Shown here piece after piece: positions 1,730 to 20,968 of a stretch of 20,984 nucleotides of DNA. The translations under genes and the position numbers were made by a program. Origin of the DNA: a virus. Under the pieces are notes generated by a model, which saw only the letters and a list, made by a program, of their open reading frames with translations, searched no databases and was not told the origin of the DNA. Where the stretch lies: the IMG/VR virus record IMGVR_UViG_3300037504_000160, positions 1-20,984 of that record. The stretch is one strand, 5' to 3'. Numbering within the stretch: position 1 is the first letter of the stretch; each line of letters begins with the position of its first letter.

Positions 1730-2296
1730 TTAAAATACTGATGAAAGACTTGTATAAATTCCAAAACGCAAGCCTTTTTCTTTTCCATACACGTCATATC
1801 CAACTTTATAGATTATATCGTTTAAATCTTTATACATTACAGATGGCTCTATCGTGTTTATTCCGGCTTCAGTTCCGATAAACAACTTTCTCTGGTTGTA
1901 AATTTTAGTTGTCTTGTGAATTTCTGTTGGCGTTCTGTTTATATACGTGAAACTTCTCTTCTGAAGTGAATTTTCTGAAACTATATCGTAAACTGATATA
2001 AAAGCAGAACTGTCACTTTTCAACGTGTCATTATAAATCTTCTGACGATTGTACTTTTGATACAGATGAGCGTATTTTACAAAGTAATTCGTTGTATCAT
2101 TATACTTTATAATCGTGTCAGTTTGTACTATCGTGTCCGGTTCCGGCGCAGGCAACTGTTTATACACAACAGAATCTTGATAAATTGTGTCACGAATTTC
2201 TTCTATTTTCGTGACAGTTTTACTTTCACAAAAGAACTTTTTAGTGACAAAGAAAGTTGCTCCAATAAGCAATAAAATGATTATTATGTTTTTCAT
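1730..2296 (-). CDS. Membrane-anchored spanin-like protein of the lysis cassette
   Basis: Residues 1-20 are a single hydrophobic segment (MKNIIIILLLIGATFFV) followed by Lys-Lys. A periplasmic-looking domain follows, rich in repeated D-T-I and Y-N-D-T elements, with no catalytic motif. The C-terminal half (R-K-L-F-I-G-T-E-A-G and G-L-R-F-G-I-Y-T-S-L) has alternating Gly/aromatic strands. The arrangement resembles the DUF6808-type proteins of Bacteroidota phages, recalled by pattern only. It overlaps the endolysin stop by 4 bases (ATGA), so it is the last gene of the lysis operon. Position and topology suggest an inner-membrane spanin analogue that disrupts the outer envelope, but no separate outer-membrane lipoprotein partner was found. 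Family assignment is tentative; gene reality is firm. Confidence 0.62.
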   Translation of the reverse strand: MKNIIIILLLIGATFFVTKKFFCESKTVTKIEEIRDTIYQDSVVYKQLPAPEPDTIVQTDTIIKYNDTTNYFVKYAHLYQKYNRQKIYNDTLKSDSSAFISVYDIVSENSLQKRSFTYINRTPTEIHKTTKIYNQRKLFIGTEAGINTIEPSVMYKDLNDIIYKVGYDVYGKEKGLRFGIYTSLSSVF

Positions 2297-2880
2297 AATG
2301 GTAATTCTATTTTTTCAGGATCAAGTTTTTCAAGTGGAACAGGTGGAAAGATAAAGCCTTCCAGTTTCAATCCATCAGTTACTTTCTCATTATAATTGTT
2401 TCTACAAGTATTAAAAGCCACCATTCCACCGGTTCTAACATCACTCGGACTGGTGTTTCCATCAATTGACTGAAAGTGACTTCCGTATTCTCCTCCACCG
2501 GCTTCTGTTACAATTCCGGCGTGACCTTTCCAACTCGGTTTTCCATTTTCAAACAAGCGAAATATAACGACACAACCGGCTACTTCATTCTTAGTATCAG
2601 TGGTAAATCTTGGTGAATTTTTACAATTTTTAAATGTCTCGGTTGCACTTCCGGTAAAATTTGAAAGTATCACCTCTCCGTAGTCTATTGGTCCGAATAT
2701 CTTGTAGTATATCATCTTTACAAAAAATTGACACCACGCATAGCCTTCATGCCAGCCTACTTGGCGCATCATGTTTTCAAATTCTTGTGACTCCCATCCG
2801 GCGTTTCCACGGATTTCTTCTAATCCTTTGTATTTTTCAGCTTCTCTAACTATTCGACTTAAAATCTCGCTCTTTGACAT
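2293..2880 (-). CDS. Endolysin, CHAP/NlpC-P60-type cysteine amidase or peptidase
   Basis: This 195-residue enzyme has the layout of papain-like peptidoglycan hydrolases. The nucleophile motif is GYAWCQFFV with Cys50, the general base lies in W-K-G-H-A-G-I-V with His120, and a polar third residue lies in SIDGN (Asp140/Asn142). The family cleaves cell-wall peptide stems or the N-acetylmuramoyl-L-alanine bond. There is no signal peptide, so it needs a holin to reach the wall. The C-terminal 20 residues are Pro/Glu-rich. A strong Shine-Dalgarno sequence sits 6 bases before the ATG, while the first 35 bases lie inside the upstream membrane-protein gene. It is followed by the spanin-like gene. The exact bond cleaved cannot be decided from sequence. 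Confidence 0.85.
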   Translation of the reverse strand: MSKSEILSRIVREAEKYKGLEEIRGNAGWESQEFENMMRQVGWHEGYAWCQFFVKMIYYKIFGPIDYGEVILSNFTGSATETFKNCKNSPRFTTDTKNEVAGCVVIFRLFENGKPSWKGHAGIVTEAGGGEYGSHFQSIDGNTSPSDVRTGGMVAFNTCRNNYNEKVTDGLKLEGFIFPPVPLEKLDPEKIELPL

Positions 2881-3729: not shown

Positions 3730-3735
3730 ATGATT

Positions 3736-4203
3736 ATGAAACGTTTAATTGTTATTTTGTTTGTTATGATTCCGTTTATCGGGAACGCTCAGTTTTTTGA
3801 TTACAGTGCTAGTGTTGAAACCGGTTATATTAATAGCCAACGGTCTATCAAGGGTTATGTTCAAGAATCTTACGCCGGATCAAATTTTTATGAATCCACT
3901 ACTCTTGAAATGTATCATCCGAAACTGTCTTTTTACAGTGATCTTCAAGTAGGGGTTCATTTTTTTAATAGGCTCATTAATTTCAAAACAAATATTCTAA
4001 CAACTTTTTCAAAGGACAATGGAATTAATTTCACTCCTTTGCTGACTAATTACATTACCAATTTATATTACGATCCTGATTTACCAATAAAAATTGGATG
4101 GAAACATAATTGTATCCACACGATTGCTCCGACTTATTTGAACGATAAAATTTATAATAGTTCATATGATCAGATTTATATAAAGTTAACAATAAAACAA
4201 TAG
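3736..4203 (+). CDS. Exported, probably outer-membrane protein encoded against the late operon (moron-like)
   Basis: The protein starts MKRLIVILFVMIPFIGNAQ, a clear signal peptide with cleavage expected after NA (an ATG two codons upstream is the alternative start). The mature part has about 135 residues with alternating aromatic/polar strands: S-A-S-V-E-T-G-Y-I near the N-terminus, DLQVGVHFF, and a terminal YDQIYIKLTIKQ. This suggests a small beta-barrel or beta-sandwich. A striking GWKHNCIHTI motif (His, Cys and His two residues apart) lies near residues 124-132. It is the only + strand gene amid the late genes and its stop abuts the tail-fibre stop. A host-envelope modifier, superinfection-exclusion factor or lysogenic-conversion protein is plausible. 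It does not show the HxSNA signature of PagL-type lipid A deacylases. Function unknown. Confidence 0.68.
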   Translation: MKRLIVILFVMIPFIGNAQFFDYSASVETGYINSQRSIKGYVQESYAGSNFYESTTLEMYHPKLSFYSDLQVGVHFFNRLINFKTNILTTFSKDNGINFTPLLTNYITNLYYDPDLPIKIGWKHNCIHTIAPTYLNDKIYNSSYDQIYIKLTIKQ

Positions 4204-7200
4204 CTATTTAGCTTTCACATTATAGTTACCTGAACCATCACCTTCAAGGTACACTTGTTTGTCCCTTAGCTGTGACAACAAATCAGCACTTGGATTAACA
4301 ACCATACCACTACCAAAAACCATAGGAGTTCCAAGCAAATGTGCACCTCTTTGATTCAGGACATATTTTGGTAATATCTGTTCTACATGAAAATAAGTAA
4401 TATCCCAATCTCCGCTTGTAATGTTGAGAACAGCCCTCAACTGATTATAATCATGTTCAATATATTCAAAGCTGTACGTATTTTCAACCCCGTATGGTTG
4501 AGAAGCATAAGTCTGTGTTTCTATTGTTGTCCAAACACCTGATATTTTTCCTTGTATTTCAAGCTCAACTTCATAATCTATGCCACTTGTATTTTGATTT
4601 TTAAAAGTCACACTTCCTGATATATAATCATACAAAGCTGCTCCTGATGATGGATATGCGGTAGATTGAGTCCCCTGATTAGTCGAGTCTGTCTCACTTG
4701 ATCTTATAGGTTGAGATGGATCAGTCGTAGAAAGACTAAGTTCATATCTTGGATTCTCACCCGTATCTCCTGAATTGTTATCATAGAGGATAAACTCTTT
4801 TGATAACCAATTTAATTTAAAACCTCCTGTATTATATGCCCACATCTTATTAGTATCTATATTGGCACCACCAATCTCCCCAGATGTTGCTGTCAAGTTT
4901 CCATCTTCATCAACTCTAAATGGAGCAGAACCCGGTGTCGTATTACCGGCCCAAAATCTATAATCTGTTCCTGCTGTTATTTCACTGTTCATTCCAACTT
5001 TGCCACTATCAGCTTTCAATTCCGTTGCCGTAAATGTCCACCCGGCAATTTGATTTGTAGAGCCAAGCGTAAATACTGTACTTCCACCGGATACACCTTT
5101 CATTCCATAATCACTTGACGAATACCAACGAAGAACAGAATAATTATCACTGTCTTCAAGAGACACAATACCATATCCCGGATTAGAAGTATTCGTGAGT
5201 GTAAGTCCACTTAAATTACCATAACGCATTCTTATATCAAACCAATCTGATTGATCTGGACTATCTTTCAATACAGCCACTTGTGTATAAGGGGAATTAC
5301 TACCAAGCGTAGTTCTTTCTATATATCCATCTCCACTAACTCCATAATCGACAATTACAGAATCATCAGAAATAGTTGTGCCGCTTATTCCACCATCATC
5401 AATTGTTGTCCAAGTCCATGATTGTTGTCCGTTAGTCTCATCAGAATAATTAGTAACTTGCCCCCAAATATCAAGTAAAGTAAGACCTCCATTTCGATCA
5501 TAATACTTAATCTTTACATAATCATTTGCTTCAAATACTGCTGTGTCTGCTGCCCCCGGTAAGTCTTCTACATATATAGTAGTCGTGTTTCCGTTGGCAG
5601 GCAGAGTAAAATCTTGTGCTATGTGAGTTACGGATTTGGCAAGTATATCTGATCCGGCCAGCGCTTGTTCTACATCTGCTGTAAATATTTGCGCCCTTAG
5701 CTCATCTGTAAATATATATCTAAAATCTGCTTGTCCCGTGTAAGTTATTCTCCATCCCGTAGTCTCCGAGGCAAAGTTATCTGTGCCAATCCATCCACCT
5801 GTCATTATTTCATTTCCCGAAAGCTGAAAATTCCCCGCTACATCCAATGCCTCAGATGGATCTTTCAAAATACCTACATTTCCCCCTGTGAATTTTAATC
5901 TGGAAGCGTTGTCTAATACAAAATCAATATCATTCGATCCATTTCCATATCCTACATAAGAACCTCGTGTTCCTGAATTATTATTAAATTCGATATAACC
6001 ATAATGAGTGTCATCTTGCCAGTTAGCCTCTACAATTCTTCCAAGTGAAGCCACCTTACTTTTATCGTTCATTGACAATTTGCCGTCAACAATATTAACA
6101 TCTCCTTTTTGAATATTGATTGTAGAAGCATTGATAGCCATATCCTTAAATGTTCCATCATTTCTATCAAACGTCCTTATTACAGACGTATTTCCAGTAG
6201 GAGAATATTCCAGCTCCATCCCTGATCCGGTTGTAGGTCTATTATTATTGTCTGTTATTCTTGTTGAATTACTGGTATTATTCCCTGCATCTGTGACTTC
6301 TTGTAGAGTAGGAACATTCGCACTTGTAAGATCAGCTACTTCTTCCCAACTACTACCGTTATAACGATAAAGTGTGCCATCATCAGTATCATACCATATC
6401 CAACCATCTTTAGGATTAGATGGAGCAGAAGATTGACGATGAATTATATCTTTTGCATGATTTTCAGTTTTATTAGAACCAGCTTCTTCAGGTGCATTAG
6501 TAGTACGCAGAGCATCTATTTCTTCAGTATCTTTCGGAGTAAAAAAGAACTCGGTAGGAATAGACACGTTTTCACCAAATAGACGATCACCACACGAAAT
6601 ATTCCATGTAGCTATTGCACTGTCTTCATCGTATTTAGTTATTCTAAACCGGAATTGAACTTCATTGGAAGTAGTATTAGGTGTATAATCTATAGTATAA
6701 CAATCATTACCACTTGAATGGTTGCCACTTATTGTTGCAAGATCAGCAGAAGAATCGAGTGAAATCGTATCTCCATTTCCACTCCAAGTACCGGCTGTAT
6801 CGGAAGTATGCGTGTTATTTGCCTCCGCACCATATATTTCAAGTTCAGCTTCATAAGATACACCACTAGAAGAATCGTCCGCATTGAGGAAACCTATAAT
6901 AATCCGGTCATTTGTCTTGTCTATACGTATGCCTACACGCTTGTCAGTGCCGGACAGATCAGGATAACCGTTCCAGTTGTCCACGTTTTGACCGGTATAA
7001 GATTTGTTAGCGGCTCCTTCTGAAGCCTCTTTTTCTACCAGATTAGCCAGTTTATTATTAACAAACTGAGTGCTTAACGCCCGTAATCCCGGAAAAGCTA
7101 CAACCTGATTTGCACCGTCCACTGAATCAAGTGTGTATTCAGTAGCCGGATTACCAACATCACCATACACATAAGAAGGAAACATTTGAACAAGCTGCAT

Positions 7201-9345
7201 CTTGACATAACCTGTTCTGTATTTCTTTTGCCACCCTACAATTCGATAATATTCAGCAGAATCACTTTCACTTGTAGGAAGAACCAATATACTGCGTGGA
7301 GAAATTTCATCATTTTTATCGTAACGTCCGAGAGAAACAAGTTTTACATAATCACGGAACTGATTAAGTTGTTGTTGCAGATAAGTCCATATAATTGGAA
7401 TATCATCCTGCCGTTCCCAACGATTCCAGCCAGATGTTCTTATATATTGAGCTGTATCAGAATCGTATGTAGTGAACGTGTTAATTTCATCATTGAATAC
7501 ACCATCACCAAATGCAAGTGACACGCTGCCACCTTCAAGTCCGTTTACATCATTTGTCTGGTAAGTTCTTTTATCTCTGGAAGAAGACTCTATTGCAGAA
7601 TCTTCTATTCTTATATCAGGTCGTCCTTTAAAAGTAAACCGAACAGTGTCATAATCACGGTTGTAAATAAAAATATCAATAGCATAATCACCTTCTTTAT
7701 CAATAACAAATGTATCATTATTAGGAGATTCCCAATAAGAATATTCATCCCAAAAGAAAAGAAAATGATCAGATTGAACATAACGATGTAGATTAGTGTC
7801 TTGTACACTGTCAGTATGATCAGTCCAAACTATGCCTTCATCCTCCCTGTCAGAATCTTTATCTGCTGGTTTGTAAATAACCACTCTCATTGTTGGAGGA
7901 TAAGTTTTAGTGGTGTCAATGCTGTTGAGTTTAAGCTGTAATCTTAATTTAATATATACTTTTTGAGTAGAAGGATCAAATTCAGTAGGCAGACTATATA
8001 CATTAAAATCTTCTGGTGAATTGATTCCAAACCAATCACTGTTTATAGCAATATCAGCCTCATTATCTGCTCTTTTATCTACAGAAACGTCTAATTTGCT
8101 ATCAGAAGATTCATTAACTGTTATACGTGTACTTTTGTTTTCGTTTGCTTTATAATCAGGATCAATTTCCCATCCCGGATCAGACAAATTTAAATCCCAA
8201 CTGTCAAGATTAGAACTGTCATCACTGCCAAGACGCTCACCAATTTTTCTTGACATGAATTCAGTATAAACACTTTTTCTAGGCTTTAATCTTTCTACAC
8301 GACCAAACGGCTCAAAATCTTCTGTATCTAAAGTAAGTTTATTATCAATAGACTGAGGAGAAGGAGATTGTACTTCAAAAGTACCTGCTTCTGTAAGTGT
8401 TCCACTAAAAAGAAATATTTGACTGTCTAATTCATTAGGATTTTCTATAATCCACTTACCATCAATTTGACGGAGTATTGCATTGAAAGGCTGAAGAACT
8501 TTTTCTATTACAGTATAACAATCGTCTACTCCTTTTAGTTCTGGATGAGATTTAACCTGCATTCCGGGAGAAGGTTGTCTTTGTCTTTCTGGATTTTCCC
8601 TGCCTTCTCTTTCAGAACGATTACCAGATGTATCCCATATACTTGTTCCTCCCTTACGTTCAGGATTCAAATTCATTCCGCCAAGCGTAGGACCCCCATC
8701 TCTTGCACCAAGACCTTTAATAAAACGTATAGGATTAATATAAGCCTCTTCTAACGGACAAACATTCGGATGTTGATTTGAACTGTCGGCATCCATCTGA
8801 TCTGTTTCGTAAGTGTTAACCATGATTTCATAATCAGGATTAACAGAAAAGCCGATTTTTTCAAGTGCAAGATGAATGACCATAAGAACAGAGAGATGAT
8901 TGTCTACAAAACGAGACTGATCTTCATCAAGCCACGGTACATCTTTTAACTGTGCAAGGCCATCAGTAGCGGAGAGTTTTATTTCATAAGGCGTATCAAC
9001 AAAATCTTTTTCTATATTTTCCGGCAGAAGCCATCCTCTGAATATTTCACTTCCTCCTTTTTTAATTATAACTTCAAAATCTTTATACCGGCTATAAATT
9101 AAGTGGTTGAATTTGCCAAGATCATCAGAGGGAGGATGTATAATAAATTCTATTTCTCGTCCGAAAATTACACGTCCAACATCTTCACGGCTTCCACGAA
9201 TACGGTCTATAATCGGATCAGGATCACCACCCCATTCAATATACTCCCATCCACCGGAGTAGTCTTTCTCGTTGATTTCTATTTCGTATTGCACTCCGTT
9301 GTAAAAGCCGTAAAAACTTCCGTAGTATCTCAGATTATATGCCAT
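4204..9345 (-). CDS. Large tail-tip/host-recognition protein with fused fibre region
   Basis: At 1713 residues this is the largest gene. Residues 1-330 resemble distal tail/tip proteins of Bacteroidota phages: the Tyr/Gly-rich opening (YYGSFYGFYNGVQYEIEI), a beta-rich region, and ILRQIDGKWIIENPNEL near 290-310. Residues from about 975 change to fibre-like modules: DGWIWYDTDDGTLYRYNGSSW, then LQEVTDAGNNT near 1013 (a motif frequent in phage fibres). Repetitive Gly/Asn/Ser/Thr-rich beta segments run on to the end. Two similar stretches, YEAELEIYG near residue 832 and YEVELEIQG near 1590, suggest a duplicated beta-sandwich. The C-terminus ends with EGDGSGNYNVKAK; no chaperone or protease domain was recognised. 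It starts directly after the tape measure stop (TAATCATGG, no Shine-Dalgarno). It likely forms the tail tip and binds the host receptor, possibly a glycan. Confidence 0.8.
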   Translation of the reverse strand: MAYNLRYYGSFYGFYNGVQYEIEINEKDYSGGWEYIEWGGDPDPIIDRIRGSREDVGRVIFGREIEFIIHPPSDDLGKFNHLIYSRYKDFEVIIKKGGSEIFRGWLLPENIEKDFVDTPYEIKLSATDGLAQLKDVPWLDEDQSRFVDNHLSVLMVIHLALEKIGFSVNPDYEIMVNTYETDQMDADSSNQHPNVCPLEEAYINPIRFIKGLGARDGGPTLGGMNLNPERKGGTSIWDTSGNRSEREGRENPERQRQPSPGMQVKSHPELKGVDDCYTVIEKVLQPFNAILRQIDGKWIIENPNELDSQIFLFSGTLTEAGTFEVQSPSPQSIDNKLTLDTEDFEPFGRVERLKPRKSVYTEFMSRKIGERLGSDDSSNLDSWDLNLSDPGWEIDPDYKANENKSTRITVNESSDSKLDVSVDKRADNEADIAINSDWFGINSPEDFNVYSLPTEFDPSTQKVYIKLRLQLKLNSIDTTKTYPPTMRVVIYKPADKDSDREDEGIVWTDHTDSVQDTNLHRYVQSDHFLFFWDEYSYWESPNNDTFVIDKEGDYAIDIFIYNRDYDTVRFTFKGRPDIRIEDSAIESSSRDKRTYQTNDVNGLEGGSVSLAFGDGVFNDEINTFTTYDSDTAQYIRTSGWNRWERQDDIPIIWTYLQQQLNQFRDYVKLVSLGRYDKNDEISPRSILVLPTSESDSAEYYRIVGWQKKYRTGYVKMQLVQMFPSYVYGDVGNPATEYTLDSVDGANQVVAFPGLRALSTQFVNNKLANLVEKEASEGAANKSYTGQNVDNWNGYPDLSGTDKRVGIRIDKTNDRIIIGFLNADDSSSGVSYEAELEIYGAEANNTHTSDTAGTWSGNGDTISLDSSADLATISGNHSSGNDCYTIDYTPNTTSNEVQFRFRITKYDEDSAIATWNISCGDRLFGENVSIPTEFFFTPKDTEEIDALRTTNAPEEAGSNKTENHAKDIIHRQSSAPSNPKDGWIWYDTDDGTLYRYNGSSWEEVADLTSANVPTLQEVTDAGNNTSNSTRITDNNNRPTTGSGMELEYSPTGNTSVIRTFDRNDGTFKDMAINASTINIQKGDVNIVDGKLSMNDKSKVASLGRIVEANWQDDTHYGYIEFNNNSGTRGSYVGYGNGSNDIDFVLDNASRLKFTGGNVGILKDPSEALDVAGNFQLSGNEIMTGGWIGTDNFASETTGWRITYTGQADFRYIFTDELRAQIFTADVEQALAGSDILAKSVTHIAQDFTLPANGNTTTIYVEDLPGAADTAVFEANDYVKIKYYDRNGGLTLLDIWGQVTNYSDETNGQQSWTWTTIDDGGISGTTISDDSVIVDYGVSGDGYIERTTLGSNSPYTQVAVLKDSPDQSDWFDIRMRYGNLSGLTLTNTSNPGYGIVSLEDSDNYSVLRWYSSSDYGMKGVSGGSTVFTLGSTNQIAGWTFTATELKADSGKVGMNSEITAGTDYRFWAGNTTPGSAPFRVDEDGNLTATSGEIGGANIDTNKMWAYNTGGFKLNWLSKEFILYDNNSGDTGENPRYELSLSTTDPSQPIRSSETDSTNQGTQSTAYPSSGAALYDYISGSVTFKNQNTSGIDYEVELEIQGKISGVWTTIETQTYASQPYGVENTYSFEYIEHDYNQLRAVLNITSGDWDITYFHVEQILPKYVLNQRGAHLLGTPMVFGSGMVVNPSADLLSQLRDKQVYLEGDGSGNYNVKAK

Positions 9346-15134: not shown

Positions 15135-15495
15135 AATCAGTTTCTATTGCCCAAAATCCTGCTTCTCCTTTACTGCCTACCATAATACCAGTAGTATCAA
15201 GTGTAATTACTACTTGCCCGTATCGTGTAGCTTGTAGATTTTGTCCAAATTTACCCGCATATTCTACTTGTGCATTATCCACTTCTTCACGAGTGACTTC
15301 TTTCTGCCTGCTCATTGCAATAAGATGAGCTGTAAACCACTTTTCTATTTGTTCAAGCAGATCAGCAGAAAGCCCTTCACCACCTAATTTGTCTGTCACG
15401 TATATATTGGCAGTAGTAATAAATGATTCTACTACCGAATCAGATAGATTAGTGTCTATCACATCTTTAACATCTGTTGCCGTAGTTCTTGCCAT
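15124..15495 (-). CDS. Head-tail connector (adaptor, HK97 gp6-like)
   Basis: This 123-residue, mainly helical protein shows the adaptor pattern. A helix with D-V-K-D-V-I-D-T-N-L-S-D comes first, followed by S-F-I-T-T-A-N-I-Y-V-T-D-K-L, then L-E-Q-I-E-K-W-F-T-A-H-L-I-A-M. A C-terminal G-Q-N-L-Q-A-T-R-Y-G-Q-V-V strand and L-D-T-T-G-I-M-V element follow. Such adaptors form the ring between portal and stopper. The gene resumes head-tail order after the six-enzyme cassette; its ATG overlaps the stop of the last sulfotransferase gene (TAATG) and an AAGGAG stands 11 bases upstream inside that gene. Confidence 0.86.
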   Translation of the reverse strand: MARTTATDVKDVIDTNLSDSVVESFITTANIYVTDKLGGEGLSADLLEQIEKWFTAHLIAMSRQKEVTREEVDNAQVEYAGKFGQNLQATRYGQVVITLDTTGIMVGSKGEAGFWAIETDYDE

Positions 15496-16187
15496 TATTT
15501 AATTACTCCTTCCTTTTTATATGAGTGCATAAGTTTCGGAGAAATGAAATTATATACTTTATCCGGTTTCCATCGCAGACCAAGCCATTGTATAGTCTCT
15601 TGCATCTCCTGATAATCACCATAAACCATTTTAGAAGGCCAAACCTGACGAACATTTAATCCATTCATTACCATTTCTACAAACCGTTCTTTGTGATAAT
15701 ACACATACCACTGCCAGTCTTCACGAGTATTAAAGGCGTTCATAAAACCGGTCTTCATGCAACTGTTAATGATGTCCTCATCCTTACGCCTTACAATAAT
15801 CCATGTGGCATTAGGAAAAGCATAATGCCACGCAGGCCACATAAGTGCCATTTTTGCACCTTTATAAAACCACGGTCCGCCTTTATATCCTTGTTCAAGA
15901 AACACATCTTCGACTCTCTTTCTCCAATCATTCGGTATTGGCAATGTATTTATATCAGGCAAAGGATATTGACCTTTCGGATCAACACCAAGTTGTTTTA
16001 AGTAAGGCTTAACAACTGTGTTTCTTATTTTTGCATTTTCATACATACCTTTTTGATTGTTCTTGTTAGGTCCCGACATCTCACCACCAAATGCACCACA
16101 AATGTTTATCACTCCTGCTGTTGCGGAAGTCATTGACCGGGGCACTCCGGTAATTAAAATCGGTGCTTTTTCAATTTGTTTTTCCAT
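15495..16187 (-). CDS. Sulfotransferase-family protein
   Basis: The 230-residue protein starts with a beta strand into a PAPS-binding loop, ILITGVPRSMTSATAGVI (residues 10-27), matching the G-x-P-R-S-x-T pattern of sulfotransferase 5'-phosphosulfate loops with Arg17 and Ser18. A second motif, WIIVRRKDEDIINSCMKT (about 129-146), matches the 3'-phosphate binding segment with Arg133/Arg134 and Ser142. No signal peptide or membrane helix is present, so it acts in the cytoplasm using host PAPS. Its acceptor is unknown; a sugar or a protein would both fit. It is the last gene of the enzyme cassette and overlaps the connector start. It begins in the TAATCATGG context, with no Shine-Dalgarno. Family confidence is high, acceptor not predictable. 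Confidence 0.78.
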   Translation of the reverse strand: MEKQIEKAPILITGVPRSMTSATAGVINICGAFGGEMSGPNKNNQKGMYENAKIRNTVVKPYLKQLGVDPKGQYPLPDINTLPIPNDWRKRVEDVFLEQGYKGGPWFYKGAKMALMWPAWHYAFPNATWIIVRRKDEDIINSCMKTGFMNAFNTREDWQWYVYYHKERFVEMVMNGLNVRQVWPSKMVYGDYQEMQETIQWLGLRWKPDKVYNFISPKLMHSYKKEGVIK

Positions 16188-16199
16188 GATTAGTTATTT

Positions 16200-16925
16200 T
16201 TATTTCCAATATTCTTTTATCCACTCATCTTTTATTTGATGAGGACGTGGCTCACCATGACACGATACTATTCTTGTATTTTTCGGAGGCTTTGTCCTCT
16301 TTGTATTGCGTACAGAATGTTTATAACTTATAATTTGACCGGGTACAATTTTATACCATTTATCAGCAATATCATTCGCAACGTGTCTCATCCAATACCT
16401 TTCACGGCCTCTTGTAATCTGTTCTGCTGCTTTAACGTCATTTATAAAAGGATTCCAGAAAATGTCTTCTGTTTCTTTGCCAGCACGAAAACTCATTATA
16501 TCTCCATCCAGTTTGCTTTTATCTTTAAAACTTGTCCTCGTGCAAAATTTGCCTTTATATTTCATAATATCTTTAAGAGAACCTGTTATAACTAAATCCA
16601 AATCAAGACAAAGAACTTGATCACCAAATAAACCGGCATCACGAGAAAACATATAAAGACGAGGCAAAACCCCTTTTTCAGAGAACATCGGTAAATATCT
16701 AAGTTCTACATTACTATCAATATTCAACTCTACATTTGTAAAACAAATAAACTTAAAATCTTCCTCGGCAAATCTGTTTACACCATAATATAAATTGTTT
16801 ACATATTTTTCTACAAGCGGGCGGGAGACTGTACCAATTCTCTTTAAATGATGAACAAATTCACCTTTTAATTCTTGCTTTTCCTGCCATCGTTCTCCTT
16901 CCCAATAAAAACATATAACTTGCAT
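16200..16925 (-). CDS. GT8-like glycosyltransferase, second copy
   Basis: This 241-residue protein opens with a beta strand, MQVICFYWEG. A D-F-K-F-I-C-F-T-N strand, a P-R-L-Y-M-F-S segment and the metal-binding LCLDLDLVITGSL (D-L-D at 108-110) follow, as in GT-A-fold glycosyltransferases. A C-terminal RIVSCHGEPRPHQI (about 218-231) with Trp-Ile-x-x-Y-Trp at the end is typical of GT8-like phage and prophage proteins. Nucleotide-sugar donor and acceptor are not predictable. It is a diverged paralogue of the gene before it: same strand order, same D-L-D position, same acidic start. The start overlaps the previous stop (TAATG). Cytoplasmic, no membrane segment. Confidence 0.8.
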   Translation of the reverse strand: MQVICFYWEGERWQEKQELKGEFVHHLKRIGTVSRPLVEKYVNNLYYGVNRFAEEDFKFICFTNVELNIDSNVELRYLPMFSEKGVLPRLYMFSRDAGLFGDQVLCLDLDLVITGSLKDIMKYKGKFCTRTSFKDKSKLDGDIMSFRAGKETEDIFWNPFINDVKAAEQITRGRERYWMRHVANDIADKWYKIVPGQIISYKHSVRNTKRTKPPKNTRIVSCHGEPRPHQIKDEWIKEYWK

Positions 16926-17614
16926 TATTCCCTTGCAATTTTATCCAACCACGGCACTGGATCAGGATTTCTAAATGACATATTTTTTGGATTGCCAGTG
17001 ACCACAATTGTTTTATTGTTTACTGTCTTTCTTTTAATAACTGTATTTATTTTCGTAATCCATTCTCTTTTAAAAGTAGGCTGATGTGGAAGCCAATCAG
17101 CATATATATCTTGTTCACTTCTATATTTATTCATCAATCGGTCAGCATCTTTTCTAAATTTATCATATACCCATGTCAGTTTACCGGGAGTAAAAAGCAT
17201 TGTTCCAGCTTGATATTTTACTATCTTTAGACCGTCTTTCGTATTAATATGTACATTTCCTTTTTTATCCAATTCTGGAGATGGAAACATCACCAAATCT
17301 CCTTGTGTATCTAAAATTGGTTGGAGTCCCTTTATTATATGAGTATCCAAATCTAAATATAAAGTACGTCCACAAGGTAAATCCGGTCTGAATAGTTCTA
17401 CTTTAGACCACCATCCCGGCCAATCATGTAACAATTCAATCTTTTCAGCCGGAATATCTGCATTCATATCATTTGTAAGACAGTAAAACCTGAATGGGCG
17501 GTCTATATGTTTTGCCACAGTCTGACGAAGTAACTCCACATCTGATTCTTTATAATCTCTTTTTCTAAAATTACCTTTCCATAAAAGGCACATTATATTG
17601 ATTCTATCTTTCAT
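16925..17614 (-). CDS. GT8-like glycosyltransferase, first copy
   Basis: The 229-residue protein shows a GT-A layout. It has an opening strand INIMCLLWKGNF, then F-R-F-Y-C-L-T-N-D, a D-W-P-G-W-W-S-K-V-E-L-F segment and the divalent-metal motif LYLDLDTHIIKGL (D-L-D at 88-90). The G-W-W-S-K-x-E-L-F plus D-L-D pair is characteristic of a glycosyltransferase group common in phages and prophages. Probable transfer of a nucleotide-activated sugar to an unknown acceptor. It overlaps the methyltransferase gene by 11 bases and the second copy by one codon. Sequence after residue 190 is basic, ending with PWLDKIARE. No signal peptide. Confidence 0.8.
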   Translation of the reverse strand: MKDRINIMCLLWKGNFRKRDYKESDVELLRQTVAKHIDRPFRFYCLTNDMNADIPAEKIELLHDWPGWWSKVELFRPDLPCGRTLYLDLDTHIIKGLQPILDTQGDLVMFPSPELDKKGNVHINTKDGLKIVKYQAGTMLFTPGKLTWVYDKFRKDADRLMNKYRSEQDIYADWLPHQPTFKREWITKINTVIKRKTVNNKTIVVTGNPKNMSFRNPDPVPWLDKIARE

Positions 17615-18128
17615 TTATATCTTCTTTTTTACAATACCAAACATTATCTACACCTGCTTCATACCAATTTTTTGTGAAAGAACTTATTGCCTTTTTAACT
17701 CCTTTAAAATTAATATCATGACCACAAAGATAACCACCGGCTGCAAGTTTTGATGACCACGCTTCTATATCTTTCTTTACAGACTCTTCATCATGACTTG
17801 CATCAATAAATATAAAATCGAGTGTGTTTTCCTTAACTTTATCTGCCATTTTCCATGAAATACCTTCTAACAATTCAACTCTTTGTCTAAAAGGATAAAT
17901 TCTGTTTAGAAATACTTCTCTGACCTTTTTACTGTCCCATTCATTTCCCATTACACCACCTATTTCTCCGTAAGAAACATCCACCCATATATCTACAGCA
18001 AAAAGCGATAAGCCCGGATTCTTTTCAAGTAAAAAATAAGTTGTCTTACCATAAGCACACCCTATTTCTGCTCCGATCTTAAAATCGTTATTTTTTATCA
18101 GCCGATTTAGCCAGTGCATTCTTTTCAT
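17604..18128 (-). CDS. Class I SAM-dependent methyltransferase
   Basis: The protein (174 aa) has the Rossmann-like methyltransferase core. Motif I is IGAEIGCAYGKTT (about 18-30), binding S-adenosylmethionine. The acidic end of strand 2 is LFAVDIW, with Asp46 placed to bind the ribose hydroxyls. The catalytic-side motif is DFIFIDASHDEESVKKDI, and a G-G-Y-L-C-G-H-D-I motif follows. The I-D-A-S-H-D-E-E-S-V-K-K-D pattern belongs to Methyltransf_24-type small-molecule and sugar methyltransferases. Methylating a sugar or an attached group fits the neighbouring glycosyl- and sulfotransferases, but no acceptor can be read. It overlaps the GT8-like gene by 11 bases. Confidence 0.83.
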   Translation of the reverse strand: MKRMHWLNRLIKNNDFKIGAEIGCAYGKTTYFLLEKNPGLSLFAVDIWVDVSYGEIGGVMGNEWDSKKVREVFLNRIYPFRQRVELLEGISWKMADKVKENTLDFIFIDASHDEESVKKDIEAWSSKLAAGGYLCGHDINFKGVKKAISSFTKNWYEAGVDNVWYCKKEDINER

Positions 18129-18142
18129 TTTCTATAATTATT

Positions 18143-18730
18143 TTAAAGCTCTCCATGTTTTTTGCAAAAATGTTTCAAATCTGGATGAAACTGAAATGCT
18201 TTTTCTGCCACTTCTTTTGCAAGTGAATAATTTTTCCACCGATTAAGTACATCCATTTGCTGACCTTTGCCATTAAAACTCCTGCTGTCAAAAGAACTGC
18301 CTCCGGCTTCATTGCCTACTTCATTAAGACTGTCTTCAGAATAAGTACCACCGAGGCTTCTACAAATCATTTTTCTATAATTACGGCTCATGAAAAAATC
18401 ATCGTAGTAAACCCGAATTACACAAGCACCTTTTAAATAATTTGTCTCACCATAATATTCCTTTGCAATAGAATACCACCATTTTACACTTCTGACAATC
18501 CTTTTTTTAGTAGAAACTCCATTAGATTTAGTATAAGAAGCAATCCAATTTTTAAAACTTCTAAGATTCAATATAACAACCTCACCTTTTATTGGCCACT
18601 CCTGTGAAAAAGTAATTGGTGAATAATTCTCTATCTCTTTAACTTCTACACCCGGAAGCCAATCCTCTATCATCCTTCTTATAAAAGAATGACCAGAACG
18701 TTTTGGATATAATTGATAAATCTTATTCAT
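18143..18730 (-). CDS. Sulfotransferase-fold protein
   Basis: This 195-residue protein has a loop Y-P-K-R-S-G-H-S-F-I-R-R (8-19) resembling the 5'-phosphosulfate loop of sulfotransferases. It also has V-V-I-L-N-L-R-S-F-K-N-W-I-A-S-Y (51-66) resembling the 3'-phosphate segment with Arg57 and Ser65, V-I-R-V-Y-Y-D-D-F-F (104-113), and a late N-R-W (163-165) often seen near the end of the family. The match is weaker than for the second sulfotransferase in the cassette, so an inactive or otherwise altered relative is possible. It overlaps the preceding gene by 8 bases. No signal peptide or membrane helix. Best read as a PAPS-dependent sulfotransferase of unknown acceptor. Confidence 0.68.
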   Translation of the reverse strand: MNKIYQLYPKRSGHSFIRRMIEDWLPGVEVKEIENYSPITFSQEWPIKGEVVILNLRSFKNWIASYTKSNGVSTKKRIVRSVKWWYSIAKEYYGETNYLKGACVIRVYYDDFFMSRNYRKMICRSLGGTYSEDSLNEVGNEAGGSSFDSRSFNGKGQQMDVLNRWKNYSLAKEVAEKAFQFHPDLKHFCKKHGEL

Positions 18731-19412
18731 TAATCACTTCTTCTAAACTAACTTTTTTCAGCTCTTTAATTGCAGAATGAGGTGATACATTGAGAATTTC
18801 TATGCCTAACTTATCTGCGTCTTCTTTTATCTTACTAAAACCTCTCATATGCCGCTGAAAGAGATTATCATTAATTTTTTTCTTGTATTCTCCGTGCCAA
18901 TGCGTTTTGCCTCCTTCATCCGGCTTCATATCAAATCCAAGCAGATAGATTCTTTTTACTCCGAGATGCCTTGCAACAGAAATTGTAGCCGCCCCGGTGT
19001 TATAATTCCAACAAATTGTATCTGGATTTTTACTTATGCCCATTCTATTGTTGTCTCTTTTCATTAGTCTTACTCCGGCTTTTTGATGATGAGCATTTAA
19101 CTTCTCGTTCATAAACCCGATTTTAAGATTCGGAAACCGAGCAAGTTCTTTTCTGTTGTGATTGAAAAAACCTCTGTCACCAAATGTTACTACTTGTATC
19201 CAACCGCCGATTTTAAAAGCTTTATTTGTACCAATCACGTTCTTATCGTGTAAAAACTCCAGATACGGAGAGTATGTACTCAGAGGCTTTTCACCTTCCA
19301 TAACCTCTTGAATAACGTCCTCCGGTACTCCAAACTGCCGGGGCATCGAAGGCCCGCCTCCGAGTATCCAACACTCACCATCCTCCCACAAAGGAGGAAC
19401 ACGAAAAGCCAT
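18723..19412 (-). CDS. DUF115/GT42-like putative glycosyltransferase
   Basis: This 229-residue protein has ECWILGGGPSMPR (13-25), a nucleotide-binding-like opening strand and Gly-rich turn, then V-I-G-T-N-K-A-F (59-66), V-V-T-F-G-D-R-G-F-F (74-83), and N-T-G-A-A-T-I-S-V-A-R-H-L-G-V-K-R-I-Y-L-L-G-F-D-M (138-162). This order is shared by DUF115 proteins, by Maf-type flagellin glycosyltransferases and by GT42 sialyltransferases; a role in attaching a sugar is plausible but donor is unknown. The H-W-H after the D-M could hold a catalytic histidine. First gene of the cassette, one base after the acidic protein stop. No Shine-Dalgarno seen. Confidence 0.7.
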   Translation of the reverse strand: MAFRVPPLWEDGECWILGGGPSMPRQFGVPEDVIQEVMEGEKPLSTYSPYLEFLHDKNVIGTNKAFKIGGWIQVVTFGDRGFFNHNRKELARFPNLKIGFMNEKLNAHHQKAGVRLMKRDNNRMGISKNPDTICWNYNTGAATISVARHLGVKRIYLLGFDMKPDEGGKTHWHGEYKKKINDNLFQRHMRGFSKIKEDADKLGIEILNVSPHSAIKELKKVSLEEVINE

Positions 19413-19413
19413 A

Positions 19414-19845
19414 TCAGTCGTTTTTACCGTTTAACTCATCACAATAATTCTGAGCATCTTCGGCTTTCAGAGCTTTTGTATTCATCTTCTTACTGCCATC
19501 AGGAGTTATTACATCATACCACGGTCCTCCACGATGTTGAAGATAAAACTCGTTTTTCACTACAGGCTGTTCTTGCCTTTCATCAGCCTGTTCATCCAAC
19601 CTGTTCTGAGGCTCTTCCTGTTCAGGATCGAAACCATCTTCTAATTTCTTAACCTGTTCACGTCCTGCAAGAGGTATTTGATCCTCCCAAGCTCTGAATT
19701 CTTCGTTGAATTTAACTTTGTACCCGGTAGTAAGACGCATCGTGCCTCCGCCTATGTGTTTTTTCCAAAGCGGACGAGGATCACTGTCTGTTTTCCTCTT
19801 TCTTGCACCTTGCGCATCACTTACCCATTGATCTTGTTTTGCCAT
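19414..19845 (-). CDS. Small head-associated protein with acidic linker, function unknown
   Basis: The 143-residue protein has three parts: a basic start (KQDQWVSDAQGARKRKT), a small beta-like segment (GGGTMRLTTGYKVKFNEEFRAWEDQIPLA), an acidic Gln/Glu/Asp-rich linker about residues 65-95, and a short domain with HRGGPWYDVITPDGSKKMNTKAL followed by a helix. The W-Y-D-V-x-x-P-D-G-x-x-x-N-x-K-A-L pattern recalls a small domain seen downstream of some phage capsid genes, but I could not name it. Neighbouring genes are capsid and the enzyme cassette; it may decorate the head or assist its assembly. The start uses the TTTAATCATGG context without Shine-Dalgarno and follows the hairpin after the capsid gene. 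Confidence 0.6.
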   Translation of the reverse strand: MAKQDQWVSDAQGARKRKTDSDPRPLWKKHIGGGTMRLTTGYKVKFNEEFRAWEDQIPLAGREQVKKLEDGFDPEQEEPQNRLDEQADERQEQPVVKNEFYLQHRGGPWYDVITPDGSKKMNTKALKAEDAQNYCDELNGKND

Positions 19846-19906: not shown

Positions 19907-20968
19907 TTAGCTAGAAGTGTATTTAACAATACCAGTAACATCATCCTTAGTCCACCTGATCTGAGGAACTGCAATACGGATAACCTTATAATTAGTCACA
20001 TAAGGTCCGTCAGCTTGCCATTCAACAACCTGTGGTCCCATACCATCAAGCAAACGTACAGTTTCAGGACTCATTTGAACAAGCAATACAGTATCAGCAG
20101 GAAGCGTGTCAACAGCTACAATCCTGTCAAGATCATTAATAGCCAAAAGCCTCTGCTGAATAGTCTGACGAGAAGCACCGCTTACATCATAATCATCCTG
20201 AATTGCCAGTTCATAAGATTTAGGAATGAACAGCATAAAAGGACCAAAGAATTTATTGGACCTTGCATCTGCCAACATATTCATCACATCATCTTTGATG
20301 TTTTCAGAAGAAGTAGCACTATCATCCCATTTATTAATCAAACTGCCGGTACTGGAATAGCTAGTAGAAAGAAGACTTGGAATAGTTTTATTAGTCTCCA
20401 ACTGATAGCCGTCACCAGTAGTAAAGAGCATATTCTCCAACTCCTGATTAACAGCACGAGTGGCATCTTCTACCATATCGGTTTGGATATCACGTCCCAT
20501 ATTACGGCTCAATTCAAGTTCCCTTGCATCAATGTCAAAATCAGACATTATGATCGGTACGGGAGTGTATTGAGTATCGTAAACCGGACGAGTGCTTCTA
20601 CCTCTGTCAGTAGGAGACATACTAACGTGCGCTCCTGCATCAACAGATTTCTGATGCCATTCATACTCGGTAATACCCATTGCATTGTTGAGAGATTTAA
20701 CCAGACCGGCATCAATCAAAGCTTGAATACCCTGTAGCCTGTCTTTGCGAGTGGCAATGACCGTCTCGTCAAGTTGCTTCCATTCATCTCTCCTCAAAGT
20801 ACCATAAGTCTGCATAGACGGATAAATCCTGTCTACCGCTTTATGTTTGCCGTCCTTGTGAGTAATAAAAACCCTTCCGGTCTTAGTATCAACCCACGGA
20901 CGCAGTTTATACGTATCTAGTAAACTTCTTCCCTGACTGGAGTTTACATCCATTACATTTATATTCAT
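19907..20968 (-). CDS. Major capsid protein (HK97-fold, encapsulin-like subgroup)
   Basis: The complete 353-residue gene matches encapsulin-like/HK97-fold capsid proteins. Features: TYGTLRRDEWKQLDETVIATRKDRLQGIQ about 55-81, G-L-V-K-S-L-N-N-A-M-G (88-98), then an S-V-D-A-G-A-H-V-S-M-S-P segment, then T-P-V-P-I-I-M-S-D-F-D-I-D-A-R-E-L-E-L-S-R (P-domain region). The R-D-E-W, P-I-I-x-x-D-F and A-R-E-L-x-x-S-R elements are typical of this capsid group. No cleaved scaffold or delta domain is obvious at the N-terminus. It has the strongest Shine-Dalgarno in the window and is followed by a conserved hairpin. It forms the shell; upstream protease or portal genes would lie beyond the window end. Confidence 0.86.
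   Translation of the reverse strand: MNINVMDVNSSQGRSLLDTYKLRPWVDTKTGRVFITHKDGKHKAVDRIYPSMQTYGTLRRDEWKQLDETVIATRKDRLQGIQALIDAGLVKSLNNAMGITEYEWHQKSVDAGAHVSMSPTDRGRSTRPVYDTQYTPVPIIMSDFDIDARELELSRNMGRDIQTDMVEDATRAVNQELENMLFTTGDGYQLETNKTIPSLLSTSYSSTGSLINKWDDSATSSENIKDDVMNMLADARSNKFFGPFMLFIPKSYELAIQDDYDVSGASRQTIQQRLLAINDLDRIVAVDTLPADTVLLVQMSPETVRLLDGMGPQVVEWQADGPYVTNYKVIRIAVPQIRWTKDDVTGIVKYTSS

What the first reader, a model, noticed from the sequence alone, without database searches (positions are those of the whole stretch)
15495..19412. Six-gene glycan/sulfate/methyl-transfer cassette inside the head-tail module
Between the capsid and connector genes lie a DUF115/GT42-like protein, two sulfotransferase-fold proteins, a SAM methyltransferase and two GT8-like glycosyltransferases. 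They are packed with 1-12 base gaps or overlaps and co-oriented with virion genes, and none has a signal peptide. Seen: motifs and packing. Known: these families transfer sugars, sulfate (from PAPS) and methyl groups. Inferred: a sulfated and/or methylated glycan is built during virion assembly, either on a virion protein or on a host envelope glycan. The head-tail module normally has no such enzymes, so placement hints at modification of virion proteins. This is the most plausible candidate here for an undescribed system.
Basis: partly seen in the sequence, partly recalled or inferred. Interest (0 to 1): 0.78.

Follow-up and report, generated by a model that had tools for sequence, protein, structure and literature searches.

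The report
Phage virion sugar-and-sulfate coat locus
In many uncultured tailed phages a swappable set of sugar-, methyl- and sulfate-adding enzymes sits between the shell gene and the neck genes, held between two nearly constant enzymes and sometimes accompanied by an enzyme that makes the sulfate donor, which suggests these phages put a variable, partly sulfated glycan on their own particles (inferred, not yet shown).

Summary
The six genes are real, intact, co-oriented and packed (-11 to +14 nt) between capsid and DUF4054 connector genes. Five are placed in the stated families, directly or through relatives; the 18143-18730 protein has only motif-level support.

The main result lies outside the window. 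In 50 non-redundant uncultured-phage loci chosen by capsid protein, 44 carry the GT42/DUF115-like gene after the capsid/DEC genes, 35 carry the 15495-16187 sulfotransferase, nearly always directly before the connector, and 5 carry neither. Between these anchors the genes turn over (19% shared between two loci, against 91% for structural genes) but are glycan enzymes under purifying selection. An APS-kinase homologue, the enzyme that makes the sulfate donor PAPS, abuts the sulfotransferase in 15 of 17 cases where it was found. Both anchors also sit together in the head module of a prophage of an isolate, Euryhalocaulis caribicus. The 418 cassette ORFs are almost all soluble.

Best explanation: a late virion-modification locus that builds a variable, often sulfated glycan on a virion protein. 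Head-module cassettes that modify virions are known (Corndog); the sulfation arm, fixed anchors and variable interior are new. The acceptor is not shown; host-surface modification remains possible.

The parts
19907..20968 (-). Major capsid protein, DUF6260/Linocin-like family; upstream boundary
   Evidence: PF19774 E 3e-15, phrog_771; relatives
19414..19845 (-). DEC: small two-domain protein of unknown function between capsid gene and cassette; candidate decoration protein / acceptor; its N-terminal domain is fused to cassette proteins in some relatives
   Evidence: co-occurs with ST42 in 41/44 vs 2/6 loci (Fisher p 0.002); fusions; absent beside the pair in Euryhalocaulis
18723..19412 (-). 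ST42: DUF115/MptE-like, GT42/Maf-like glycosyltransferase; conserved first cassette gene
   Evidence: phrog_4603 E 2e-27; PF01973 in 19/24 aligned members; fold: Maf 5mu5 Z 15.0, CstII Z 12.3
18143..18730 (-). SULT2: putative sulfotransferase, motif-level only (PKRSG loop, R(x)7S); no relatives found
   Evidence: a family-supported sulfotransferase occupies the same slot in L010 but is not detectably similar
17604..18128 (-). MT: SAM methyltransferase, Methyltransf_24; weak match to rhamnosyl O-methyltransferase/CmcI
   Evidence: PF13578 E 2e-15, PF04989 E 3e-4
16925..17614 (-). GTa: GT8-like glycosyltransferase with invariant DLD
   Evidence: phrog_1962 E 4e-18; alignment A9; profile to GT8 structures E 1e-4
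16200..16925 (-). GTb: phrog_1962 glycosyltransferase with invariant D108/D110
   Evidence: phrog_1962 E 1e-20; alignment A8; no solved relative by profile
15495..16187 (-). SULT1: PAPS-type sulfotransferase; conserved last cassette gene, 1-nt overlap with the connector gene. The window copy has Met at the nearly invariant Gly19 of the PAPS loop
   Evidence: 78 relatives; Sulfotransfer_3 in 46/47; model pLDDT 92.8; tyrosylprotein sulfotransferases Z 15.5; invariant residues
15124..15495 (-). DUF4054 head-tail connector protein; downstream boundary
   Evidence: PF13262 E 5e-8, phrog_302

Best explanation
This is a virion-modification ('coat glycan') locus of a large group of uncultured tailed phages. 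It is expressed late, in the same operon as capsid and neck genes. The conserved Maf/GT42-like enzyme (ST42) transfers a sugar; exchangeable interior enzymes (here two GT8-like transferases, a probable sugar O-methyltransferase and perhaps a second sulfotransferase) extend and decorate it; the conserved sulfotransferase (SULT1) adds sulfate from PAPS, which some of these phages appear to make with an APS kinase homologue encoded beside it. The likeliest acceptor is an exposed virion protein (DEC, capsid or tail tube). Shown here: gene content, order, conservation, fold, co-occurrence with APS kinase, selection. Inferred: enzyme activities, late expression, glycan identity and order of steps, the acceptor, and the benefit (a changeable, charged particle surface).
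For: Fixed architecture in capsid-seeded, non-redundant loci: 34 of 50 have both anchors, 44 ST42, 35 SULT1; in all 71 loci ST42 is the first non-DEC gene in 59 of 63 and SULT1 is directly before DUF4054 (APS kinase allowed) in 52 of 55. Packing: DEC-ST42 within 20 nt in 99/100, SULT1-DUF4054 in 79/84. Sulfation chemistry: invariant PAPS-loop residues and R134/S142, Sulfotransfer_3 in 46/47, sulfotransferase fold, and an APS kinase homologue adjacent to SULT1 in 15 of 17 distinct cases. Glycan chemistry: interior families include methyltransferases, GT2, GT11, GT47, epimerases, GDP-Man dehydratase, hexapeptide transferases. Soluble: only 2 of 418 cassette ORFs have a strongly hydrophobic segment. 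Constraint: pN/pS 0.03-0.38 in one closely related pair. Virion link: DEC N-domain fused to ST42 in L150 and L220 and to other cassette proteins in L117, L208, L209, L228. Independent context: ST42-SULT1 pair inside the head module of an Euryhalocaulis prophage. Precedent: Corndog methyltransferase and glycosyltransferases between portal and protease genes (PMC4351075), reported to modify capsid and tail tube (PMC11600133 citing Freeman 2023).
Against: No acceptor is identified and nothing shows the modification on virions. DEC is missing beside the Euryhalocaulis pair, so it cannot be the universal acceptor; fold matches of SULT1 and ST42 to enzymes that act on proteins show shared fold, not substrate. 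The window copy of SULT1 departs from a nearly invariant glycine of the PAPS loop. The window and most relatives show no APS kinase and would need host PAPS. Similar islands in pelagimyophages were read as host O-chain modification (PMC7029224). P1 PmgO, a distant relative of ST42, is dispensable for lytic growth (PMC10695390).
Confidence: 0.56

Rival explanations
1. The cassette alters the infected host's surface polysaccharide (glycosylation, methylation, sulfation) to block superinfection or ease release; being beside virion genes only gives late timing.
For: Published reading for glycosyltransferase islands in structural regions of pelagimyophages (PMC7029224) and for the Gratiaviridae glycosyltransferase beside portal and capsid genes (PMC8008677). 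Variable sugar enzymes fit host-glycan diversity.
Against: Almost no membrane-embedded ORF in 418 cassette ORFs, whereas known seroconversion systems use membrane flippases and lipid-linked transferases (general knowledge); position fixed between capsid/DEC and connector; DEC-domain fusions; the Corndog precedent.
Confidence: 0.27
2. The enzymes modify the phage genome (hypermodified bases with glycans or other groups) to evade restriction.
For: Phage glycosyltransferases can hypermodify DNA (Pyle 2024, cited in PMC12619734); the methyltransferase matches a PHROG labelled DNA methyltransferase.
Against: Thymidylate synthase family over the cut-off in only 1 of 25 long relatives; the Pfam match is Methyltransf_24 with a weak sugar O-methyltransferase match, not a DNA methylase; late head-module position.
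Confidence: 0.05
3. A site where unrelated moron genes accumulate, with no common function.
For: High gene turnover (19% shared); inserts also occur between later genes in some loci (L055, L064).
Against: The interior is strongly biased to glycan chemistry, under purifying selection, with two fixed anchors and an APS kinase that tracks the sulfotransferase.
Confidence: 0.07

Closest known systems
Virion-glycosylation cassette of cluster O mycobacteriophages (Corndog; PMC4351075; Freeman 2023 as cited in PMC11600133)
   Same: O-methyltransferase and several glycosyltransferases inside the head gene block, reported to modify capsid and tail tube
   Different: No sulfotransferase or APS kinase in the passages read; different place (portal/protease); fixed anchors around a variable interior not described there
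D3/PAJU2-type Pseudomonas phages (Detrevirus)
   Same: ST42 relative (E 1e-30 to the ST42 profile) and a methyltransferase inside the head-tail block
   Different: Inserted between head closure and tail completion genes; no sulfotransferase seen; function unknown; the D3 capsid paper does not mention glycosylation
Phage P1 PmgO / P7 HdmB
   Same: C-terminal ST42-like similarity, annotated as putative morphogenetic function
   Different: Weak match over 39% of the query; PmgO dispensable for lytic growth (PMC10695390)
Maf flagellin glycosyltransferase / GT42 sialyltransferases CstI-II
   Same: Fold of ST42 (Z 15.0 and about 12)
   Different: No NeuB and one CTP_transf_3 match in 47 records, so the donor sugar is unknown
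Hypervariable host recognition cluster of pelagimyophages (PMC7029224)
   Same: Variable island with GT8 and other glycan genes in the structural region
   Different: Much larger (44.6 kb), includes tail fibres, read as host O-chain modification

Membership tests
PAPS-dependent sulfotransferases (SULT1, 15495-16187) | Family profile match | tested here: met
   Sulfotransfer_3 in 46 of 47 aligned members; the window copy alone is sub-threshold
PAPS-dependent sulfotransferases (SULT1, 15495-16187) | 5'-phosphosulfate loop and 3'-phosphate R...S motif | tested here: met
   Invariant G14, R17, S18, T20, S21, R134, S142; window has M at nearly invariant G19
PAPS-dependent sulfotransferases (SULT1, 15495-16187) | Sulfotransferase fold | tested here: met
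   Z 15.5, rmsd 3.5, 194 residues to 5wri; sulfotransferases hold the top ranks above adenylate kinases
PAPS-dependent sulfotransferases (SULT1, 15495-16187) | Sulfuryl transfer activity | not testable with these tools
   Needs purified protein
PAPS-dependent sulfotransferases (SULT2, 18143-18730) | Family profile or structural match | tested here: inconclusive
   No profile, PDB or homologue hit; two short motifs only
GT42 / DUF115-MptE / Maf glycosyltransferases (ST42) | Profile and fold match | tested here: met
   PF01973 in 19/24 aligned members, window copy sub-threshold; Maf Z 15.0, CstII Z 12.3
GT42 / DUF115-MptE / Maf glycosyltransferases (ST42) | CMP-sialic or other nonulosonic acid donor | tested here: inconclusive
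   No NeuB in 47 records, CTP_transf_3 in 1; the host could supply the donor
APS kinase (relatives, not in the window) | Profile, Walker A and DGD..R motifs | tested here: met
   PF01583 over cut-off; PDB APS kinases E 4e-21; invariant G12, K13, D36, D38, R41
APS kinase (relatives, not in the window) | Complete C-terminal part including the lid | tested here: not met
   Best profile matches stop near position 100 and the ORFs are 123-161 aa, so these are called APS kinase homologues
GT8 glycosyltransferases (GTa, GTb) | Match to GT8 | tested here: inconclusive
   GTa profile to GT8 structures E 1e-4; GTb none; no Pfam GT8 hit
Virion-glycosylation cassette (Corndog type) | Glycosyltransferase and methyltransferase genes inside the virion structural operon | tested here: met
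Virion-glycosylation cassette (Corndog type) | Glycan on capsid or tail protein | not testable with these tools
   Needs virion mass spectrometry
Serotype-conversion (gtr-like) cassette | Membrane flippase / lipid-linked transferase | tested here: not met
   2 of 418 cassette ORFs exceed KD 2.0 over 19 residues; simple hydropathy test only

The most novel reading that the evidence does not exclude
A widespread phage group makes sulfated virion glycoproteins with its own sulfotransferase and, in some members, its own PAPS-making APS kinase, and swaps the glycan like a serotype through a variable locus between fixed anchor genes.
Probability: 0.42. Interest if true: 0.85.

Novelty: new variant of a known kind. 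Interest (0 to 1): 0.7.

Why it matters
The role of sulfotransferases in phage genomes has been called unclear (PMC10580990). This locus gives a concrete, testable answer: a dedicated sulfation step tied to virion genes, with donor supply in some members and an isolate prophage as a possible model. If true, it would add sulfation to known virion modifications and reveal a serotype-like variable coat in tailed phages, relevant to phage recognition by hosts, grazers and antibodies.

Tried and rejected
Capsid single-sequence scan found no relative; the alignment did. SULT1 and a consensus-like sequence of its family have no match in 50,697 phage records. SULT2 has no relatives in IMG/VR or in the fetched loci and is not detectably similar to the family-supported sulfotransferase in the same slot of L010. 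Nonulosonic-acid synthesis by the phage: not supported. DNA hypermodification: not supported. Tests of congruence were only rank correlations of identities (SULT1 with structural genes about 0.27, ST42 0.50-0.76); SULT1-seeded sampling truncates the range, so no claim of exchange is made. Promoter and terminator scans near chance; no RNA family, no tRNA. Host: seven relatives in genome contigs scatter over phyla and mostly come from MAGs, so no host is assigned. Open-access text searches gave no report of this locus; subscription papers are mostly not held and Freeman 2023 could not be read.
Full report
What is there. The window is a 20,984-base fragment of an uncultured phage, held as one virus record. 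On the - strand it carries, in order of transcription, capsid protein, a small protein (DEC), the six genes of the finding, DUF4054 connector, further connector and neck genes, major tail protein, tail chaperone, tape measure and a 1713-aa protein. The six ORFs are intact, with spacings from -11 to +14 nt.

Family placement. ST42 (18723-19412) matches the phage 'alpha-2,3-sialyltransferase' family; family members match DUF115/MptE-like, and a confident model (pLDDT 92.8) is nearest the Maf flagellin glycosyltransferase (Z 15.0) and CstI/CstII (Z about 12). SULT1 (15495-16187) is below Pfam thresholds alone, but 46 of 47 aligned members match Sulfotransfer_3; the PAPS-loop and R...S residues are invariant, and the model (pLDDT 92.8) is nearest tyrosylprotein sulfotransferases (Z 15.5). 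The methyltransferase is clear, and the two glycosyltransferases belong to phrog_1962, one with a GT8 link. SULT2 (18143-18730) rests on two motifs.

A recurring locus. SULT1 finds 78 relatives in IMG/VR (43-63% identity) and none in 50,697 phage records. To avoid the bias of that search I started from the capsid protein. Among 50 non-redundant loci that span capsid to DUF4054, 34 carry both ST42 and SULT1, 10 ST42 only, 1 SULT1 only and 5 neither. Over all 71 loci the first non-DEC gene is ST42 in 59 of 63 and the last before DUF4054 is SULT1 in 52 of 55, apart from APS kinase. Empty forms exist: L120, L124, L130, L186, L229 (L120 and L130 have identical capsid proteins over the aligned part), and the cultured Brevundimonas phage StAshley, which shares the capsid and connector families without a cassette. 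The capsid-to-connector distance ranges from 4 to 8743 nt, median 4445.

Variable interior. Between two loci on average 19% of interior genes have a homologue in the other, against 91% of structural genes. A Pfam census of 194 interior proteins finds methyltransferases, GT2, GT11, GT47, radical SAM, epimerases, dehydratases, hexapeptide transferases, sulfotransferases and APS kinase. In one closely related pair (L041, L043) the interior genes have pN/pS 0.03-0.38 against 0.05-0.19 for the DUF4054-to-tail-assembly genes, so they are under purifying selection.

Sulfate supply. Small ORFs (123-161 aa) next to SULT1 in some loci are APS kinase homologues (PF01583 over cut-off in 9 of 47 records; PDB APS kinases E 4e-21). 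Of 17 distinct cases 15 abut SULT1 and one more is one gene away. Their profile match ends near position 100, so the lid part is missing or changed. This is the strongest sign that the sulfotransferase is used as one. The window itself shows none.

Virion or host. For the virion: end genes overlapping or touching DEC and DUF4054, almost no membrane proteins among 418 cassette ORFs, the DEC N-domain fused to ST42 or other cassette proteins in L150, L220, L117, L208, L209, L228, DEC co-occurrence (p 0.002), the ST42-SULT1 pair between head-morphogenesis and protease genes of an Euryhalocaulis prophage, and the Corndog precedent (PMC4351075, PMC11600133). For the host: published readings of comparable islands (PMC7029224, PMC8008677). 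DEC is absent next to the Euryhalocaulis pair, so the acceptor is open.

Verdict. A sulfating, methylating glycan locus tied to virion genes is well supported; its target is inferred. Virion modification by head-module cassettes is known; sulfation with donor supply, fixed anchors and a variable interior make this a new variant.

Noticed in passing
L085 8396-9612: Euryhalocaulis caribicus JL2009 (isolate) carries ST42 and SULT1 side by side between head-morphogenesis and maturation protease genes of a prophage-like region with a different capsid family (phrog_264).
   Followed up: partly
L117 11132-13249, L228, L208, L209, L220, L150: The N-terminal DEC domain is fused to larger cassette proteins, twice together with an ST42 domain.
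   Followed up: partly
L055, L064 between DUF4054 and the next connector gene: Several extra genes are inserted between DUF4054 and the following connector gene in a few loci: a possible second variable site.
   Followed up: no
window 3730-4203 (+): A 157-aa ORF with a hydrophobic N-terminus ending in NAQ looks like a secreted protein of Bacteroidota type, a hint at the host.
   Followed up: no
window 2293-2880 (-): Protein with a sub-threshold CHAP match (E 2e-4) and a weak endolysin PHROG match: probable lysis or tail hydrolase.
   Followed up: no
window 4204-9345 (-): A 1713-aa protein downstream of the tape measure with almost no family match.
   Followed up: no
phage P1 pmgO, P7 hdmB: P1 PmgO resembles ST42 over its C-terminal part; P1 offers a laboratory system to ask whether such proteins glycosylate virions.
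   Followed up: partly
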